From Vineibacter terrae (GTDB taxonomy: Bacteria > Pseudomonadota > Alphaproteobacteria > Reyranellales > Reyranellaceae), in the NCBI RefSeq assembly GCF_008039615.1, contig NZ_VDUZ01000043.1, positions 1 to 64,000 on the forward strand: a stretch of 64,000 bases of DNA, read 5' to 3'. Of the stretch, positions 34,672 to 42,930 are shown piece by piece. A model generated the notes under the pieces. The model ran no database searches. It saw nothing but the letters and a program-made list of their open reading frames with translations, and was not told the origin of the DNA. Every line of letters begins with the position of its first letter. Positions within the stretch are counted from its first letter, which is position 1. The translations under genes and the position numbers were made by a program.

Positions 34672-35484
34672 CTAAACATGCCACACGCGCGGCAGGCGGG
34701 GCGGCAAATCCAAGCATACCGACCGCATGTTCGCCAGCCATGACGCAAGCCCGCGGCGCACCGGCAACGCCGCGCCCAGGAAGCGCGCCAGCAGCAGCCC
34801 GTTCACCACGGTGGCGCCGGCCTTCACGTCGGACGGCAGCGCCGAGCGCGCGGCCTCGAGATGGCGCGCCGCGTCGTCGGCGACATAGAGCGCCATGGCC
34901 ACGGACGTGGCGTCGCCGAAGCCGGCGGCCACCGGCGCCGCCGTGTCCAGCCGCAGGGCATCGGCCCACACCAGCCTGCCGTCGCGCCGCACGCGCCACG
35001 CATCGAGCAGCAGGCCCGAGGTGAAGCGCTCGCCGCTGGCGATGCGGCCCAGCACCACCATCTCGCAGGCCAGCAGGCGACCACCGGCGGCGATGTCGAC
35101 CACCGTGCGCCGCCGCAGGCGGGCGCCGTCGAACAGGATCGTCTCCTGCGGCAGCCATTCCAGCGCCGCGCCTGCCGCGACCGAGACCGCGATGTCGATG
35201 ACGCAATCGGCCGCCACCGGCGAGGCGCGGTAGATCTTCTCCGCCGCCTGGGTGGTCGCCGTCGCGACCGCGCCCGCGTGCAGGCGCGCCTGCAGCCGCA
35301 GGCGGTCGCCATCGGCCAGGCCACCCGACATGGTGACGAACACGGCTTGCGGCGGATCGCCGGGCTCGCCGTGGGGAAAGAGCACGCGGCAGGGATCGCG
35401 CTGATAGAGGTCGGCCAGCGCCGTGCCCTGCGGCCCCAGCGCATAGGCCACCGAAGCCGCGCCGTCGCCGCGCTGCAGCTTCAT
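34672..35484 (-). CDS. ureD: Urease accessory protein UreD
   Basis: A 270-residue UreD (UreH-type) protein. Typical segments are TALADLYQRDPCRVLFPHGE at the N-terminus, MSGGLADGDRLRLQARLHAG near residue 52, TTQAAEKIYRA, and LEWLPQETILFDGARLRR. It scaffolds UreF and UreG on apo-urease and forms a nickel tunnel. It is the first gene of the cluster. The ATG at 35484 has only a weak ribosome site (CGGATGG); the frame continues upstream but without family similarity. Confidence 0.93.
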   Translation of the reverse strand: MKLQRGDGAASVAYALGPQGTALADLYQRDPCRVLFPHGEPGDPPQAVFVTMSGGLADGDRLRLQARLHAGAVATATTQAAEKIYRASPVAADCVIDIAVSVAAGAALEWLPQETILFDGARLRRRTVVDIAAGGRLLACEMVVLGRIASGERFTSGLLLDAWRVRRDGRLVWADALRLDTAAPVAAGFGDATSVAMALYVADDAARHLEAARSALPSDVKAGATVVNGLLLARFLGAALPVRRGLASWLANMRSVCLDLPPRLPRVWHV

Positions 35485-36006
35485 GCTCGACCATCCGGGC
35501 TGATCACGCCGCCATGCCTCCCCCGCCGGCGCGGGGTTATGGCACAGCGCGCCGCCGCGGTCAGGCGTTCCGGTTCTTGTCCGCCATCCACGCGACTGCG
35601 CCTGCGCTGTTTCAGATATTGCCAACACGGTGGATTTCGAAGCCGCATCAACAAGTTAAATCAGAGCGGCATGACTGCCGGAAACCTGCGCTGTTTGCGG
35701 AGAAAGCATATCCGTCCAGCCGGGGCGGCAGGACACTGAGCGTCAGGTGGTGTTCCATGGCGTTCGACTCCGGAAGTCAGCCGCAGCGGCGCGATACATC
35801 TGATGCCGACGAGAATGCGAGGACGAGACAATGCCCTGTGACGACCGGGCCGGCGAAACGCCCGCTATGCCTCGCAAGATCATGGTCTCGCGGCACGCCC
35901 GGCGGCGGCGAAGAACATCATTACATCACGGCCTCGATCGCCGCAACGGAATGAAAAGAGACCAGGCTTGTTTTGCTGTCGGCGACTGTTCACGGAGGGG
36001 GAGACC
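35485..36006. other. 522-bp divergent intergenic region
   Basis: Between ureD and the 1260-residue gene. It is the divergent control region of both. A plus-strand frame of 146 codons runs through it (35514-35954) but has Arg/Ser-rich, unstructured composition and no ribosome site, so I do not call it. I see no sigma-54 site and no family A-F repeat here. Confidence 0.5.
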
Positions 36007-39000
36007 GTGGCCGATCTCAGCCAACCGCTCGTCAGCACCGCTGCCGGTGCGTCCAATCCCTGGGGCAGCGCCGCGATCCAGGGCAACGCGCTGGCCACCT
36101 TCAAGGCCGAGCTGCGGCACGGCGTTGCCTTCGACCTCGGGCTCGGCGCCTACGTCAACCTCGACGCCAAGTTCCAGAAGTACGTCGCCGCCGAGCTGAC
36201 CGGCCAGGCGATGGCCGAGGTGCGCGTCACCGGCCAGGTGCAGGTGCCGCTGAACCTGTTCGAGGAGATCGGCCTGGCGGTGCGCCTGAAGCTGGCGGCC
36301 GAGGCCGCCGCCGGCGTGTCGCTGCGGCTGGGGCTGAGCGCCGGCGAGCTGCTCAGCCTGGTGCAGACCGACCTGCGCGTGCAGGGGCTACCGCTGAAGC
36401 TGTTCATGATCTTCCTCGACGAGGCCACGTTCGGCGGCGGCCTGTATGCCAAGGCCGCCGCGTCGGCGATGGCTTACGTCAATCTCGTCGTCAGCGGCCG
36501 GGCGCTGCAGGGCCCGACCCAGAACGAGACGCCCGGCTTCAACTTCCTGTTCGAGATGGGCGCCGGGCTGAAGGCGGGCGCCGGGTTCCGCTTCTTCGTC
36601 AATGCCGGCATCGGCAGCTTCGAAAGCCTTGTGAGCCGTTCGGTCGATGCCGTCGTCGACGAGGTCGTGGTCCAGATCCTGCAGCACCTGCCCGCGTCGG
36701 CCTCGGCCGAGGCCGCGATCACCCGCGCCTTCGCAGCGCCCGCCAAGATCGCGCTGCGCAACGCCTACGAGATCGGTGTGCTGCTGGGCAGCACGACGCA
36801 GCCCGTACCGGTCTCCGCCGACGGCGCCAAGCGGCTCGCCCTGCGCTGCTGCCAGGTGATCCTTGAGGAAAGCCAGCGCTACCTGCTGCAGCGGATCGCG
36901 TCGGCCGCCGTGCTCGACCTGCAGCGCACGCTGGAGCAGCAGCTTGCGAGCCTCACCGGCGTCACCTGGACCACCGCCAATGACGCCGTGCGAGCGCTGG
37001 GCCAGAAGATGACGCAATGCCCGGCCGATCCGTTCGCGGCCGCCAGCCTCTCCTATTGGACCGCGCTCGTGCCGCTGGCATCGCAGGCGCTGGACGCCGT
37101 CTCGCCCGGCACGCCGCTGCCACGCAAGCCAGTGGCGCTGCTGTGGGCGGCGATGGAGCTGCTCGGCATCTGCGCCAGGCGCCTGACCGATCCGCAGGCC
37201 CGCGCGTCCTTCACGCTGGCCGGACTGAATCCGGCCTCCGCGCAGCAGAGCTTCCAAGGCCCAACCGTCTCCGATCCCGGCGCGGCCATCCGCCGCGAGA
37301 TCCGCGGCAACACCACGACCGCCCCGTTGCGGCTCGAGGAGCTGATCCAATACCTGGTGGACCAGGGCATCCAGCTCGCCGTCACGGTGCTGCCCGACGT
37401 CGCGGTGTACCTCAAGATCTTCCAGGGTCCGGTCGGGGCCACGGTCGCCGATGTGGCGGCCGTGCTGCTCTCGCAGCTTGGTCCGATGAAGACGGACAGC
37501 CAGGGCAGCCCGGACGTCAAGGCCAGCCTCGGCGCCCTGGCCGCCGGGCTGTCCGGCTTTCTGGTGCAGACCGTGCGCGGGCAGCTCGCCCCCATCGTGC
37601 AGAACCTGGCAGCCGACAACCCGGACCTGCGACTGTACTTCGACGAGGTCCTGGTGCCGTCGCTGAACCTCACGACCGAGCTGGTGTTCGATCGCGTGCT
37701 GGCCTGGGACACGCAGCCCGTCGACAAGAGCGCCTTCACCGAAGCACTCTCCAGCGTGCTGGTGATGCTGTTCGGCCGCAGCCTGACGGTCACGGCCGAC
37801 ATCCTGATGACCACCGCCCAGCAGCAGATGCAGGCCCTGCTGCTGGATCTGGCCGACCATGTCGACGATGTCGGCCTGGTGCGCATGCTGACGCCGGTGA
37901 TGGGCGGCGCCAGCGCCCAGGAGATCGCGGAGACCATGGCCGAGGTGCTGCGGGTCGGCGCCGATGTGTTCGGCCCCCTGCCGCAGGAGACGCGCGCCCA
38001 TATCCGCAACCTGTTGTACGAGCTGCTGGAGCCGCTGCCCCTCACCGGCCAGGCGGGCTTCGTGGACCAGCTTGCCGACAATCTCTTCCTGCCCGATCCG
38101 GCCGGGCTCGATGCGCTTTCCAAGGAGCTGGCCGGGATCGCCGGCCAGCGCTTCATGCAGTTCGTCGCCTTGCTGCTGGTGCGGATCGGCCAGAAGGTGA
38201 TCGAGGACCTGCTTCAGACGCTGCAGGCGATCCAGGCCCAGGTGCAGCGCTGGCTCGCCGACCTGGAGCATCTGGCACAACAGATCCTGCAGCGACTGGC
38301 CGACCTCGCGCGCCAGATCGAGCAGCTGGCGGCCCAGGTTGCAGCTGCCTTCGCCGATGCGCTCGATCAGCTGCGGGATCTCATCCACACGCTGTCATCC
38401 GGCCCGGGTCGCAACCAGCTGCGCACCGGCCTGTCGGCGGCGGTGTACGACTTCATCAAGCCGCTGCTGACCGACAACCTGGTCTATGCCGCGCTGCCCG
38501 GCGGGGTGAAGCAGGTGGCGCGCAACGCGCTCAAGGGTGCCATCGACGCTGCCCTCGACAATGCCGTGGCCGACCGGGTCTGGGACGCCATCGGCGCGGT
38601 GGCGGCCGAGACCGACGACCTGATCGATCGCTTCCGCGACATCGAGCCCGGTGCGAACCTGGCCAGCGAGGTCGCCGATGTGCTGGTGGACTGGTTCGTC
38701 GACCGCATCCTGGATCGCATCGGTACCACACCCACGATTCCCATCCGCTTCGACGTGTCCTGGACCATGGACGTGGTGGAGATCGACTTCTCGGGCGTGC
38801 ATGTCCGCACCAGGCGCTTCGAGCAGGAGATCAACCTCGGCGCGGTCCGGCTGGACCTCGGCTGGCTGGAGCCGACGCTGCGAGACATGATCAAGGGCCT
38901 GCAGCTGTTCCAGGGCACCGTCAACCAGATCGCTACGTCGCTGGCCCATGCCTTCGGCCTGGAGCAGGATCTTGACCAGGCGCAACGCGATCGCGACGAG

Positions 39001-39789
39001 GCGCAGGACGAGCAGCAGCACGTGAACGCCCAGCGCGCCGACTCGCAGGCGCACGAACGCAGCATCCACATCGAGACACCGGGCCACGCAACCGCTCTCG
39101 ATCGCGACATCCCCGTCAGCATCGCGCTCGACGGTGTGCCGCTGTCGTTCCTCGGCCTGGGCGACAACGAACAGCAGCGCGTCTTCGTCTGGCTCGACGG
39201 CGTGCCCGTCGATCTCGACCGGTTCCAGGTGGAGAGCACGCCTGACGGCCTGGCGAATCGTATCGGCGACATCCGCCGCAATGCCGGCGCCTGGGGCCAG
39301 CACGTGCTGCCCGGCCTGCGCATGGGCGCTCCGGGCGCAGCGCTGAAGGCGGTGCCCGCCACGTGGGCGAGCGCGCCGGTGCTCGGCGCCAAGGCGCGGA
39401 CGCGGAAAGGCGGCCGTGCCGCAGCGGTCCCTGTCATCCCGGGCGCAGCGAGCGGTCCAGGGGGCCTTCGCCTGCGCATGACCTTGGACATCGAGGGTCT
39501 CGACGAGGGCCTGCACACGCTGCTGGTCGTCATCGCCGAAGGCCAGAGCCGCGTGGAGCAGACCGCCGCGTTCCTGGCGGTGCCGCCGATGGCGGTGAAG
39601 AAGCCGCCGGTCCGCGTGCACGTGCCGATGCCCGGCACGGCGCGCCCGCCCAAGGCGCCGCGCAAGCAGAAGGCCCGCTTCCTGTTCGAGCGGGCGGCGC
39701 TGCGCCAGGAGGCGCAAGGCCGGCTGCTGCGCCAGGTGCAGGCGCAGAAGATCACGCCACGATCGCGCATCCTGCGCGGGCCGGCGTGA
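36007..39789 (+). CDS. Large protein of unknown function (1260 aa)
   Basis: I do not recognise a family. Visible layout: no signal peptide; residues 1-220 are amphipathic with alternating Gly/Ala/Val patterns (LGAYVNLDAKFQKYV, FEEIGLAVRLKLAAEAAAGV); 220-730 are helical and Leu/Ala-rich; 731-798 is a strong coiled coil (LLQTLQAIQAQVQRW onward); about 905-945 has beta-like TIPIRFDVSWTMDVVEIDF; 988-1019 is a charged coil rich in Gln, Asp and Arg; 1035-1205 looks like Ig/beta-sandwich material (RVFVWLDGVPVDLDRF, LDEGLHTLLVVIAEG); the last 45 residues are very basic. Start: GTG at 36007 after GGAGGGGGAGACC. It is followed 231 bp later by another unknown large gene. Confidence 0.8.
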   Translation: MADLSQPLVSTAAGASNPWGSAAIQGNALATFKAELRHGVAFDLGLGAYVNLDAKFQKYVAAELTGQAMAEVRVTGQVQVPLNLFEEIGLAVRLKLAAEAAAGVSLRLGLSAGELLSLVQTDLRVQGLPLKLFMIFLDEATFGGGLYAKAAASAMAYVNLVVSGRALQGPTQNETPGFNFLFEMGAGLKAGAGFRFFVNAGIGSFESLVSRSVDAVVDEVVVQILQHLPASASAEAAITRAFAAPAKIALRNAYEIGVLLGSTTQPVPVSADGAKRLALRCCQVILEESQRYLLQRIASAAVLDLQRTLEQQLASLTGVTWTTANDAVRALGQKMTQCPADPFAAASLSYWTALVPLASQALDAVSPGTPLPRKPVALLWAAMELLGICARRLTDPQARASFTLAGLNPASAQQSFQGPTVSDPGAAIRREIRGNTTTAPLRLEELIQYLVDQGIQLAVTVLPDVAVYLKIFQGPVGATVADVAAVLLSQLGPMKTDSQGSPDVKASLGALAAGLSGFLVQTVRGQLAPIVQNLAADNPDLRLYFDEVLVPSLNLTTELVFDRVLAWDTQPVDKSAFTEALSSVLVMLFGRSLTVTADILMTTAQQQMQALLLDLADHVDDVGLVRMLTPVMGGASAQEIAETMAEVLRVGADVFGPLPQETRAHIRNLLYELLEPLPLTGQAGFVDQLADNLFLPDPAGLDALSKELAGIAGQRFMQFVALLLVRIGQKVIEDLLQTLQAIQAQVQRWLADLEHLAQQILQRLADLARQIEQLAAQVAAAFADALDQLRDLIHTLSSGPGRNQLRTGLSAAVYDFIKPLLTDNLVYAALPGGVKQVARNALKGAIDAALDNAVADRVWDAIGAVAAETDDLIDRFRDIEPGANLASEVADVLVDWFVDRILDRIGTTPTIPIRFDVSWTMDVVEIDFSGVHVRTRRFEQEINLGAVRLDLGWLEPTLRDMIKGLQLFQGTVNQIATSLAHAFGLEQDLDQAQRDRDEAQDEQQHVNAQRADSQAHERSIHIETPGHATALDRDIPVSIALDGVPLSFLGLGDNEQQRVFVWLDGVPVDLDRFQVESTPDGLANRIGDIRRNAGAWGQHVLPGLRMGAPGAALKAVPATWASAPVLGAKARTRKGGRAAAVPVIPGAASGPGGLRLRMTLDIEGLDEGLHTLLVVIAEGQSRVEQTAAFLAVPPMAVKKPPVRVHVPMPGTARPPKAPRKQKARFLFERAALRQEAQGRLLRQVQAQKITPRSRILRGPA
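39429..39482. repeat. Family D-like palindrome inside the 1260-residue coding sequence
   Basis: GTCATCCCGGGCGCAGCGAG (39431 on) resembles one arm of family D, and a loosely inverse GCCTTCGCCTGCGCATGAC follows. In frame it encodes about VPVIPGAASGPGGLRLRM between an Arg/Lys/Gly-rich linker and a beta-strand region, so it looks like an in-frame repeat insertion. Confidence 0.5.
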
Positions 39790-39828
39790 TTCGCAACCTT
39801 CCCCGAGGGAAGGCGGCGCACGAAATCA

Positions 39829-39998
39829 CCTCTCCCCGCGAGAGCGGGGAGAGGAAGGGGCCCATGCCGCAGGCATGGGAAGGTGAGGGGTAGGAACGCT
39901 CAAAGCATGCGCCGGAATACCGGGACTGGACGATCGTACCCCTCACCCTCCCGCGCTACGCGCGGGCCCCTCCCTCTCCCCGCTCCCGCGGGGAGAGG
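39829..39998. repeat. Family B palindromic repeat, copy 4
   Basis: Outer arms CCTCTCCCCGC-gaga-GCGGGGAGAGG and CCCCGCTCCCGCGGGGAGAGG, inner GGTGAGGGGTA facing TACCCCTCACC, hairpin CCCATGCCGCAGGCATGGG. It lies between the two unknown large genes and ends 22 bp before the second. Confidence 0.88.
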
Positions 39999-40020
39999 TG
40001 TCAGGGAGGAGGAAACGACC

Positions 40021-41943
40021 ATGCCTGACGCGCTTGATCGCGATCTCTCGTTCGCCGACCTGATGGTGCGGATCGGCTATCAGCTGCTGGCCGGCGTCCA
40101 GGCGTTCTGGTTCGGCGGGCCGACGCAGAATCCCAACGAGGCGCTGGCGATCGTCGACGATGCCGCGCGCCTGCGGGCGGCACGCGCCTACTGGACCGGC
40201 ACGCTGGCACCGTGGATCGCCGACCTGTCGCAGCTCGATGCCGCGCCGCCTCCGGCGCTCACGTTCTCCGCGGCGGCGTCCGACCCGGACGTGATCGGCA
40301 CTGATGCGGGCCGCCGCGGCCTGCACGCCGAGCCCATGCCCGACATCCTGCTGCAGGACCTCGGCTGCATGGTGGCGCTGGACGAGGTCGCCGCCTTCAC
40401 GGCGCAGCTGGCGACGTTTCCCGGGCAGACATTGCTGTCGCTGATGCGCCAGGTGCTGCAGGGCCAGACCGCATCGCTGACGCGCGAGGTTCAGGCGATC
40501 GGCCTGCAGGCCGCGCGGCAGGTGCATGAGCTGGTTCGCCGCTTCGACTACGTGACCCGGCTGAGCATGCTGCCGGCGCGCCACACGGTCTCGTTCACCG
40601 AGCTGCTGGCGCTCTACCGCATGGAGGGGAATTGCTGCTGCGCCCCGCCCGAGCTGAGCTTTCCCCATGGCCCCCTGACGCTCACCCGCACGGGAACATG
40701 CCGCACGCCTGACGTCATCCGCGACAGAGGCGCCGCTGCCGCCGACAAGTCCGCCAGCCGGCCGGGATGGCTCCTCGTGATCAGCGCCAGCCTTCTGACG
40801 ACGGGCGCCGACGAAGACTTCCGCCTGAAGCTGGCCCAGGAAAATCTCAACTGGATCGGCGGGCTGGACGCCCTGACGACATGGTCGCTGCAGCCCGGCG
40901 ACGAGCTGCGCGAGATCGCGGAAGCCGACTTCCGCTCGAACAGCGCGCGTGCGGCATCGCTCACCCGCAGGAGCAGGCTCGCCGTCGTCAACCGGCCGAC
41001 CTACGACCGGCTGCTCGAGACGCTATGGATGAGCGCGCTCGAGACGCAGGACAGCCTGCCGGCGCTGGGGCCCAGCCTCGATGCCGCCTATGCCGAGCTC
41101 AACGAGCTGATGCGCCTGCACAAGGCGCGAGCAGAGCCGACAGCCGCCAATCCCGAACGCCTCTTCCTGCTGAGCGACGACTATGGCAACGCCACGTTCG
41201 CTGCCTTGAAGGCGGCGGCGCGCTGGTATCGATCGCGCCTCAATCCGCTGTCCTTGCTCGCCTGGCGTGACCGCGCGGCCGATCCAACGGTGCCGCGCTT
41301 TGGTCCGTTCACCGCCTATCTGCGTTATCACCTTGGCGACGTGCTGTTCATGGGGTGCGTGATCCGCGTGCTGAAGGATCTGCTGCGGCTGCGAAGCAAG
41401 TGGGAGGCCGAACCCGCCGCTTCCGGCTGGAGGAGCGCGATTCCCGACGCGAGCTGGCTTCCCGCCCTGCTGGACAATGCCGGGTGGACGCAAGGCACGG
41501 CGAGCGCGCATGCCGCCGCCTTGCAGGCTGCGGACCGGTTCTGGAGCCAGAACGCCGTCTACTACAATCCACCCGGCACAGGCTTCGATCCGACCCTGCC
41601 TGCGGGCGAGCTGGTCTGGCGCACGGTCGGCGTGCAGCAGGCGTGGCGCGCAGCGGGCGGTGTGCCGCCATGGTTCCCGCCCATCGCAGCGCCAGATGCC
41701 GTGGCGCTGCAGGCAGCCGATACGGTCAATACCGTGATGACGATCATCCGGGACAACGGGCTGGTGCCGGCCCTCGACGCGGCCCTGGAGTACTCCCTGC
41801 AGCGCCAAGTGTTCTCGCTCCCGGCCATGCAGGGGCACAGCAACCTGAAGAAAAGCTTCGCCGTGGCGGAAAACTTCCGGAGACTGCAGCTCTACCTCGA
41901 AGCCGCCCGGGACCACGCCGGGCTGGACATCAACGGCGCCTGA
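40021..41943 (+). CDS. Protein of unknown function (640 aa), partner of the 1260-aa gene
   Basis: I do not recognise a family. No signal peptide or membrane segment is evident. The protein is mainly helical with many aromatic residues; a notable motif is EGNCCCAPPELSFPHG (about residue 202), with three consecutive cysteines that could bind a metal or form disulfides. A C-terminal segment NLKKSFAVAENFRRLQLYLE precedes the end. ATG at 40021 has a strong GGGAGGAGG ribosome site. It is co-directional with the 1260-residue gene; the 231-bp gap holds only a family B repeat, so they probably form one unit. Confidence 0.78.
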   Translation: MPDALDRDLSFADLMVRIGYQLLAGVQAFWFGGPTQNPNEALAIVDDAARLRAARAYWTGTLAPWIADLSQLDAAPPPALTFSAAASDPDVIGTDAGRRGLHAEPMPDILLQDLGCMVALDEVAAFTAQLATFPGQTLLSLMRQVLQGQTASLTREVQAIGLQAARQVHELVRRFDYVTRLSMLPARHTVSFTELLALYRMEGNCCCAPPELSFPHGPLTLTRTGTCRTPDVIRDRGAAAADKSASRPGWLLVISASLLTTGADEDFRLKLAQENLNWIGGLDALTTWSLQPGDELREIAEADFRSNSARAASLTRRSRLAVVNRPTYDRLLETLWMSALETQDSLPALGPSLDAAYAELNELMRLHKARAEPTAANPERLFLLSDDYGNATFAALKAAARWYRSRLNPLSLLAWRDRAADPTVPRFGPFTAYLRYHLGDVLFMGCVIRVLKDLLRLRSKWEAEPAASGWRSAIPDASWLPALLDNAGWTQGTASAHAAALQAADRFWSQNAVYYNPPGTGFDPTLPAGELVWRTVGVQQAWRAAGGVPPWFPPIAAPDAVALQAADTVNTVMTIIRDNGLVPALDAALEYSLQRQVFSLPAMQGHSNLKKSFAVAENFRRLQLYLEAARDHAGLDINGA

Positions 41944-42073
41944 AGATCCTGCATCGCGCGGCGGCTGCCCGCCAATCGGCAGATAGCAGGGCGATCGCGT
42001 GTCGCACCACGAAAAGAAAACCACAGAGGCACAAAGGCACAGCGCAGCCTTTGGCCGCAACCAAGCGGAAGGA

Positions 42074-42160
42074 CCGCTTCATGGTGAGCCTGTCGAACCA
42101 TGAAGCGCCGTACCACTGCTCGTGCGACGCCTTCATGGTTCGACAGGCTCACCATGAGGC
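42074..42160. repeat. Family C palindromic repeat, copy 3
   Basis: Arms TTCATGGTGAGCCTGTCGAA and TTCATGGTTCGACAGGCTCA with a GTACCACTGCTCGTGCGAC loop. It is nested inside the family F composite. Confidence 0.85.
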
Positions 42161-42165
42161 TACTT

Positions 42166-42326
42166 AAATCACCGTAACTTGCGAAGATTTCTTGAGGTCA
42201 GTAGTACAGAGGCAACACAGAGAGAAAATCATTGCGCGCCTTCGGCGCGCGATGATGTCTTGCTCTGTGTGAACTCTGCGTCTCTGTACTATTGACCTCA
42301 AAAATCTTCGCAAGCCGCGGTGATTT
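42166..42326. repeat. 161-bp imperfect palindrome (family F, inner)
   Basis: AAATCACCG, CTTGCGAAGATTT, TTGAGGTCA and TAGTACAGAG on the left recur inverted on the right (CTCTGTACTA, TGACCTCA, AAATCTTCGCAAG, CGGTGATTT), around a central GCGCGCCTTCGGCGCGC hairpin. Confidence 0.85.
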
Positions 42327-42329
42327 GAG

Positions 42330-42482
42330 CCGGCTCGCTGTCACCCTGAGCGCAGCGAAGGATCTTTTGGGCGGTGCTATCGCACAGGCCCGTCGCTGGC
42401 GCATGGTGCGTCGATGGTTCCGGCCGTGCGAGCCGATGGTCCAAGAGATCCTTCGCTGCGCTCAGGATGACAGCGAGCCGGC
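42330..42482. repeat. Family D palindromic repeat, copy 2
   Basis: GGCTCGCTGTCACCCTGAGC and GCGCAGCGAAGGATCTTTTG on the left face AGATCCTTCGCTGCGCTCAG and GATGACAGCGAGCC on the right. It is directly followed by the right arm of the family F composite. Confidence 0.85.
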
Positions 42483-42612
42483 AACATGCAGCGTGCCCGC
42501 TGGGTTGCGGCCAACGGCTGCGCTGTGCCTCTGTGGTTCGTCTTTCGATAGTTCCGCCGGCAACGCCACATGTGATCGCCCTGCGCCAGACGGGGATGGC
42601 GCCAGGGATTGC

Positions 42613-42930
42613 CTACGTCGTGTGTGGCAAGTCCAAAATCCGGCGCGAGGTCATCGACACGATGCCGGCGGCGATCCAGATCGCGCCCGCCACCAGCTTC
42701 ACGACAAGGCCCGCCGTCCCATCGGCCACCAGCCCGAGGGCGATGTTGAGGACGCCAAGGACCAAGCCGATCCAGCTCATCACCGTGAGCTGGCGCCGGT
42801 ACTTGGCGACGAACTCGGCATGGTCGCCCTTGAAGTTCTTGCGCATCCAGCCGCCGCGCACCTTGCGGGTCTCGATCGGAGTCCAGATGCACACCACCAC
42901 CGCCGCCACCAGCGCGATCAGCTCGAGCAT
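42613..42930 (-). CDS. Small membrane protein of unknown function
   Basis: A 105-residue protein with three hydrophobic segments (about residues 2-18, 50-68 and 74-95), separated by a basic loop (ETRKVRGGWMRKNFKGDHAE). It resembles uncharacterised small integral membrane proteins; no function can be given. ATG at 42930 follows GGGGAGGCGGGG. It stands alone between repeat-rich gaps. Confidence 0.7.
   Translation of the reverse strand: MLELIALVAAVVVCIWTPIETRKVRGGWMRKNFKGDHAEFVAKYRRQLTVMSWIGLVLGVLNIALGLVADGTAGLVVKLVAGAIWIAAGIVSMTSRRILDLPHTT

What the first reader, a model, noticed from the sequence alone, without database searches (positions are those of the whole stretch)
36007..41943. Two consecutive unknown large proteins: candidate undescribed system
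A 1260-residue protein with Gly/Ala amphipathic, coiled-coil and Ig-like parts is followed by a 640-residue protein with a CCC motif. Both have strong ribosome sites and normal codon bias for this genome, so they are real, but neither shows a known catalytic or structural family to me. The layout (large scaffold-like protein plus a helical partner) could suit an envelope, encapsulation or inter-bacterial assembly. No phage, secretion or toxin gene is beside them, so the role is open.
Basis: inference. Interest (0 to 1): 0.75.

Follow-up and report, generated by a model that had tools for sequence, protein, structure and literature searches.

The report
Giant protein with swappable neighbour genes
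A soil-type bacterium carries a rare, undescribed giant protein that in other bacteria sits directly before one of several unrelated partner genes, one kind of which belongs to a family of injected bacterial toxins, so the pair looks like a fixed carrier with an exchangeable payload.

Summary
Both genes are real. P1 (36007-39789, 1260 aa) belongs to a rare family that no library used here names: 14 of 75 genomes of the host family, plus a few other contigs including a Nitrospirota one. P2 (40021-41943, 640 aa) is an orphan in everything searched. So the two named genes do not co-occur elsewhere. P1, however, is followed directly by a partner gene in every inspected homolog whose 3' side is on the contig. 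Four partner kinds are mutually unrelated by sequence: a papain-like protein (Reyranella-type loci), a 368-aa protein (two genomes), a 299-aa protein (Nitrospirota), and P2 here. In the first three the partner start overlaps or lies close to the P1 stop. In the window the 231-nt gap holds a 174-nt interspersed palindromic repeat. The papain-like partner is homologous to proteins next to PAAR genes on enterobacterial plasmids and fused to Hcp/TssD in Tenacibaculum, so it is an effector-type domain. Only 4 of 12 P1 genomes have a T6SS marker, and no immunity-like gene follows. Best reading: a conserved carrier/holder with an exchangeable effector, P2 being this genome's effector. Delivery, target and P2's activity are unknown.

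The parts
36007..39789 (+). P1, 1260-aa conserved giant protein (carrier/holder candidate), GTG start
   Evidence: 32-40% identity to homologs over nearly the whole length; codon-position GC
36052..36606 (+). P1 residues ~16-200: best-conserved part, Gly/Ala/Ser-rich, amphipathic beta periodicity; fold not resolved
   Evidence: two-residue periodicity, conservation; pLDDT mostly under 50, strands drawn
36619..38721 (+). P1 residues ~205-905: mostly helical
38098..38397 (+). P1 residues 698-797: one ~100-residue predicted helix, coiled-coil-like
   Evidence: weak coiled-coil family matches
38734..38856 (+). P1 residues 910-950: long beta hairpin between helices
39049..39576 (+). P1 residues ~1015-1190: Ig-like beta-sandwich with a disordered insert
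   Evidence: Z 9.2, rmsd 2.9 over 100 residues against Ig constant domains
39574..39786 (+). P1 basic C-terminal tail, net charge +15 over 71 residues
   Evidence: basic tails also in homologs
39827..40000 (.). Interspersed paired-palindrome repeat between P1 and P2 (two units 144 bp apart); without it the gap would be about 57 nt
   Evidence: 109 units in the genome, 0 for the reversed control
40021..41943 (+). P2, 640-aa orphan protein in the partner position
40007..40012 (+). AGGAGG ribosome site of P2

Best explanation
P1 and P2 form a two-gene unit of a rare, undescribed kind: a conserved giant protein (P1) that binds, holds or carries an exchangeable effector encoded directly downstream, P2 being the effector of this genome. 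Shown: P1 is a conserved family; the slot after P1 is filled by four mutually unrelated protein kinds; the genes are tightly coupled in the other lineages; one kind belongs to a family linked or fused to T6SS parts elsewhere. Inferred: P2 is the equivalent partner here; partners act as toxic or damaging enzymes; P1 keeps the partner inactive or takes it to its target, perhaps through the amphipathic beta region at its N-terminus. Unknown: route out of the cell, target, and P2's activity.
For: P1 homologs in 14 of 75 family genomes and in 13 contigs of the GTDB collection, some the same genomes. Partner directly 3' in every inspected homolog with that side on the contig. Junctions read as TGATG in L072, ATGA overlap in L073 and in L013, TGACATG in L010/L012/L021 and 4 nt in L025. 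The partner kinds show no sequence relation to one another. The papain-like partner family (A3) is homologous to lone genes (hhalign 97.1%, E 7e-11), and these to genes beside PAAR genes and to a TssD fusion. Q-x5-C and His are invariant in 15 members. P1 tree: each partner kind falls on its own branch. In the same-genus genome G002 the ureD-DUF interval holds another gene, so the locus is a variable site.
Against: P2 has no relative and no recognised domain, so its role rests on position alone, and the 231-nt gap is wider than at other loci. No secretion signal or delivery gene lies beside any P1 locus. Nothing tested shows toxicity or binding. In the Reyranella-type loci P1 sits at one fixed place between an MFS gene and hslUV, as a resident gene would. 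The papain assignment rests on motif and spacing; a profile search of solved structures gave no papain match.
Confidence: 0.45

Rival explanations
1. Intracellular defence or abortive-infection unit: P1 is a sensor that holds an effector in check and releases it on phage infection; effectors are exchanged, as in known modular defence systems.
For: Conserved protein plus exchangeable effector; no immunity-like gene after the partner; patchy distribution; no delivery system needed, fitting the low T6SS rate of P1 genomes.
Against: No PADLOC match of weight; P1 shows no NTPase or other recognised sensor domain; loci lie among metabolic genes, and in Reyranella at one fixed site.
Confidence: 0.2
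2. P1 and P2 are independent neighbours; P2 is an unrelated orphan gene beside P1.
For: P2 is found nowhere else; the 231-nt gap holds a mobile repeat; the same interval in G002 holds an unrelated gene.
Against: Every other inspected P1 with its 3' side present has a partner in the same orientation and slot; without the repeat the gap would be about 57 nt; the pair is in the same orientation without a predicted promoter or terminator between.
Confidence: 0.15
3. P1 is a structural or surface protein of the cell and the partner is a processing or assembly enzyme for it.
For: Long helices, Ig-like domain and conserved N-terminus suit a structural protein; a papain-like partner could process P1.
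Against: Unrelated partners in the same slot are not expected for one processing step; no signal peptide seen by eye and no hydrophobic segment over the usual membrane threshold in P1; the papain family has T6SS-linked relatives.
Confidence: 0.15

Closest known systems
T6SS cargo and specialised effectors of the papain-like kind (PAAR-linked and TssD/Hcp-fused genes; compare Cpe1-Cpi1, PMC12136450)
   Same: The Reyranella partner family is homologous to genes that follow PAAR genes and to a TssD fusion
   Different: Partner follows a giant P1 instead of PAAR/VgrG/Hcp; no small gene follows it; 8 of 12 P1 genomes lack TssB; P2 itself is unrelated to this family; homology to Cpe1 itself was not shown
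Polymorphic toxin systems (large carrier with exchangeable toxin; PMC3482391)
   Same: Conserved large protein with interchangeable effector-like modules
   Different: The payload is a separate translationally coupled gene, not a C-terminal domain; no immunity gene; P1 shows no known trafficking domain
Modular defence systems with exchangeable effectors
   Same: Constant protein plus variable effector, no separate immunity gene
   Different: No defence-library match of weight; not found in a defence island

Membership tests
T6SS effector-immunity pair | Physical link to Hcp, VgrG or PAAR (fusion or neighbour) | tested here: not met
   No such gene beside P1-P2 or beside the Reyranella P1 loci; met only by relatives of the papain-like partner
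T6SS effector-immunity pair | Host genome encodes a T6SS | tested here: inconclusive
   TssB (PF05591) in the window's genome and in 4 of 12 P1 genomes in all; some of the rest are incomplete assemblies
T6SS effector-immunity pair | Small immunity gene directly after the effector | tested here: not met
   The next gene after the Reyranella partners is hslU on the other strand, about 20-35 nt away in L025, L012, L020; no convincing gene in the 670 nt after P2, which are full of repeats
Papain-like cysteine peptidase (Reyranella partner, not P2) | Gln-x5-Cys and His in order | tested here: met
   Q73, C79, H232 invariant in 15 sequences
Papain-like cysteine peptidase (Reyranella partner, not P2) | Papain fold or significant profile match | tested here: inconclusive
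   No papain in profile search of solved structures; single weak chymopapain match E 0.51; fold not predicted
Papain-like cysteine peptidase, applied to P2 | Gln-x5-Cys motif or homology to the A3 family | tested here: not met
   No motif; hhalign probability 0.1%
Polymorphic toxin carrier | Constant carrier with variable payloads | tested here: met
   Four unrelated partner kinds after P1; that they are payloads is inferred
Polymorphic toxin carrier | Payload fused to carrier, secretion domain, immunity gene | tested here: not met
   Payload is a separate gene; no secretion domain found; no immunity gene
Known anti-phage defence system | Match to a curated defence model | tested here: not met
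   Only a weak LeoBC match, E 0.047, over the long-helix part
Immunoglobulin-like fold (P1 C-terminal part) | Beta-sandwich match to solved Ig domains | tested here: met
   Z 9.2, rmsd 2.9, 100 residues

The most novel reading that the evidence does not exclude
P1 is the vehicle of a so far undescribed protein-delivery or effector-release system, independent of T6SS, that combines carrier and inhibitor roles in one giant protein and uses separately encoded, exchangeable effectors; its amphipathic beta N-terminus would insert into or cross a membrane.
Probability: 0.15. Interest if true: 0.85.

Novelty: new variant of a known kind. Interest (0 to 1): 0.55.

Why it matters
If P1 is a carrier or holder with exchangeable effectors, it would be a new vehicle for toxin-like enzymes outside the known secretion systems, and the partner slot after P1 would be a way to find unknown effector families (none of the four found here has a name in the libraries used). 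Relatives of one partner occur with a small downstream gene in PAAR loci and without one in P1 loci, which makes a direct test possible: whether P1 itself is the inhibitor.

Tried and rejected
Family libraries for P1 and P2: only weak matches over the long-helix part of P1, about residues 670-870. P2 relatives: weak hits in G080 and G432 look like chance, as the genes in those places are of unrelated kinds. P2 in viral contigs, phages, plasmids: none. P1 in phages, plasmids, viral contigs: none. Shared N-terminal docking helix in all partners: not above the background of other N-termini. Relationship between P2 and other partners: none. P1 as a T6SS-dependent part: 4 of 12 P1 genomes have TssB, so not required. 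Fold search with the whole P1 model against PDB and viral structures: nothing significant apart from the Ig-like domain by the second aligner; other parts were barely tested. N-terminal 262 residues folded alone: pLDDT 42, not searched because such a model gives meaningless matches. Laying the whole genome in the Python box was not available.

Full report
The sequence shows two real genes on the + strand between the urease accessory gene ureD (34672-35628, - strand; named from its position in the urease cluster) and a small gene (42613-42930, - strand). P1 is 1260 aa and P2 640 aa. Both have ribosome sites, and GC by codon position is typical of the genome. No Pfam, NCBIfam, PHROGs or PADLOC family reaches a meaningful score; the weak matches fall on the long helical part of P1. 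I did not determine the organism's name. The window lies in an 8.76-Mb, 135-contig genome (G000). Named contigs equal in length to those of its family-mates are labelled Reyranella or Alphaproteobacteria, so the family is probably the Reyranella family (inference).

P1 is a conserved but rare family. It occurs in 14 of 75 genomes of the host family, in no other genome of 398 drawn from the phylum, and in one further genome of 385 of the class as a short match over the long-helix part only. In the GTDB contig collection 13 contigs carry it, among them a Nitrospirota contig with low GC3 and a different gene context. Identity to the window's P1 is 32-40% over nearly the whole length. None of the other three genomes of the window's own genus has it. 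The window's P1 groups with the Nitrospirota one (97/96) rather than with its Reyranella-type relatives, which suggests horizontal transfer, with the caution that both are long branches.

Anatomy of P1. AlphaFold on a 14-sequence alignment gave a moderate model (mean pLDDT 61, pTM 0.48). Residues 205-1010 are mostly helical, with a ~100-residue helix at 698-797 and a long beta hairpin at 910-950. Residues 1015-1190 form an Ig-like sandwich with a disordered insert (Z 9.2, 2.9 A over 100 residues). A basic tail follows. The first 200 residues include the best-conserved stretch (51-200), yet are not resolved by either model. They show strong two-residue hydrophobic periodicity and are rich in Gly/Ala/Ser, so amphipathic beta strands are likely. 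Whether these strands form a membrane structure is not shown.

The partner slot. Every inspected P1 homolog whose 3' side lies on the contig is followed at once by a gene in the same orientation. In the Reyranella-type loci it is a 305-337 aa protein (alignment A3). In G445 and G453 it is a 368-aa protein (A4). In the Nitrospirota contig it is a 299-aa protein. In the window it is P2. The junctions are a 1-nt stop/start overlap in L072, 4-nt overlaps in L073 and L013, a 1-nt gap in L010/L012/L021, 4 nt in L025 and about 30 nt in L020. The kinds show no similarity to each other by BLAST or hhalign. In the window the gap is 231 nt, of which 174 nt (39827-40000) are a paired palindrome of a repeat with 109 units in the genome. 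Without it the gap would be about 57 nt.

The Reyranella partner is an effector-type protein. Its profile finds lone genes elsewhere in the host family, one of them in the window's own genome (G000:C51), and the relation is confirmed by hhalign (97.1%, E 7e-11). One such lone protein finds proteins on enterobacterial plasmids by tblastn (E to 7e-31). In Edwardsiella, Pantoea and Enterobacter these follow PAAR genes and are followed by a ~131-aa gene, the layout of an effector-immunity pair. In Tenacibaculum the domain is fused to TssD/Hcp. Q-x5-C and a His are invariant among 15 members, as in papain-like peptidases. A profile search of solved structures found no papain, so the fold is not proven. 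Papain-like T6SS effectors are an established class (Cpe1, PMC12136450; EvpQ, PMC7991086), but homology to those proteins was not shown here.

What differs from known T6SS cargo. P1-linked partners have no small gene after them: hslU follows on the other strand within about 20-35 nt. P1 genomes often lack TssB (present in 4 of 12), while all six tested genomes with lone relatives have it. The counts are small and several assemblies are incomplete. The P1-linked form is therefore probably not simply T6SS cargo, and P1 may replace both carrier and immunity protein (inference).

P2. No relative was found in 61 related genomes, 75 family genomes, 398 phylum genomes, the GTDB contigs, viral contigs, phages or plasmids. 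It has no papain motif and no hydrophobic segment over the usual membrane threshold, and no recognised domain. Its CCC triplet has no evident meaning. Its place in the partner slot is the only evidence for its role. In genome G002 of the same genus, the interval between ureD and the downstream small gene holds a 345-aa gene without a family instead of P1-P2, so the locus is a variable site.

Verdict. The pair is not a conserved P1-P2 system, but it is one instance of a conserved P1 with exchangeable partners, at least one of an effector-type family. The best-supported mechanism is a carrier or holder with an exchangeable effector (0.45). Defence, chance neighbours and a structural role remain open.

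Noticed in passing
39827-40000: Interspersed paired palindrome (CCTCTCCCCGC-N4-GCGGGGAGAGG, units about 144 bp apart); 109 units in the genome, many of them in pairs 144-150 bp apart.
   Followed up: partly
42010-42550: Nested set of inverted repeats (arms of 23-57 nt, up to 97% complementary) downstream of P2.
   Followed up: no
L074:9351-10439 (G000 contig C51): The window's own genome has a lone 362-aa relative of the papain-like partner, with an N-terminal part that by eye resembles peptidoglycan-binding domains (Pfam finds none).
   Followed up: partly
L104:2375-3412 (G002): A 345-aa protein without a family occupies the ureD-side interval where the window has P1-P2.
   Followed up: partly
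L107:7935-8249 (G002): A 104-aa peptide with a signal-like start and many Asn-Gly repeats (NGxxxNG), beside a 297-aa gene that resembles peptidoglycan-binding proteins by eye.
   Followed up: no
L020:19786-22347: An 853-aa protein with a metallo-beta-lactamase match and a C-terminal weak match to peptidase family C25 (caspase-like).
   Followed up: no
L083:6667-7062, L085:6654-7049, L086:6654-7049: Small gene of about 131 aa directly after PAAR-linked papain-like genes; the one tested (L085) has no Pfam or NCBIfam family; candidate immunity protein.
   Followed up: partly
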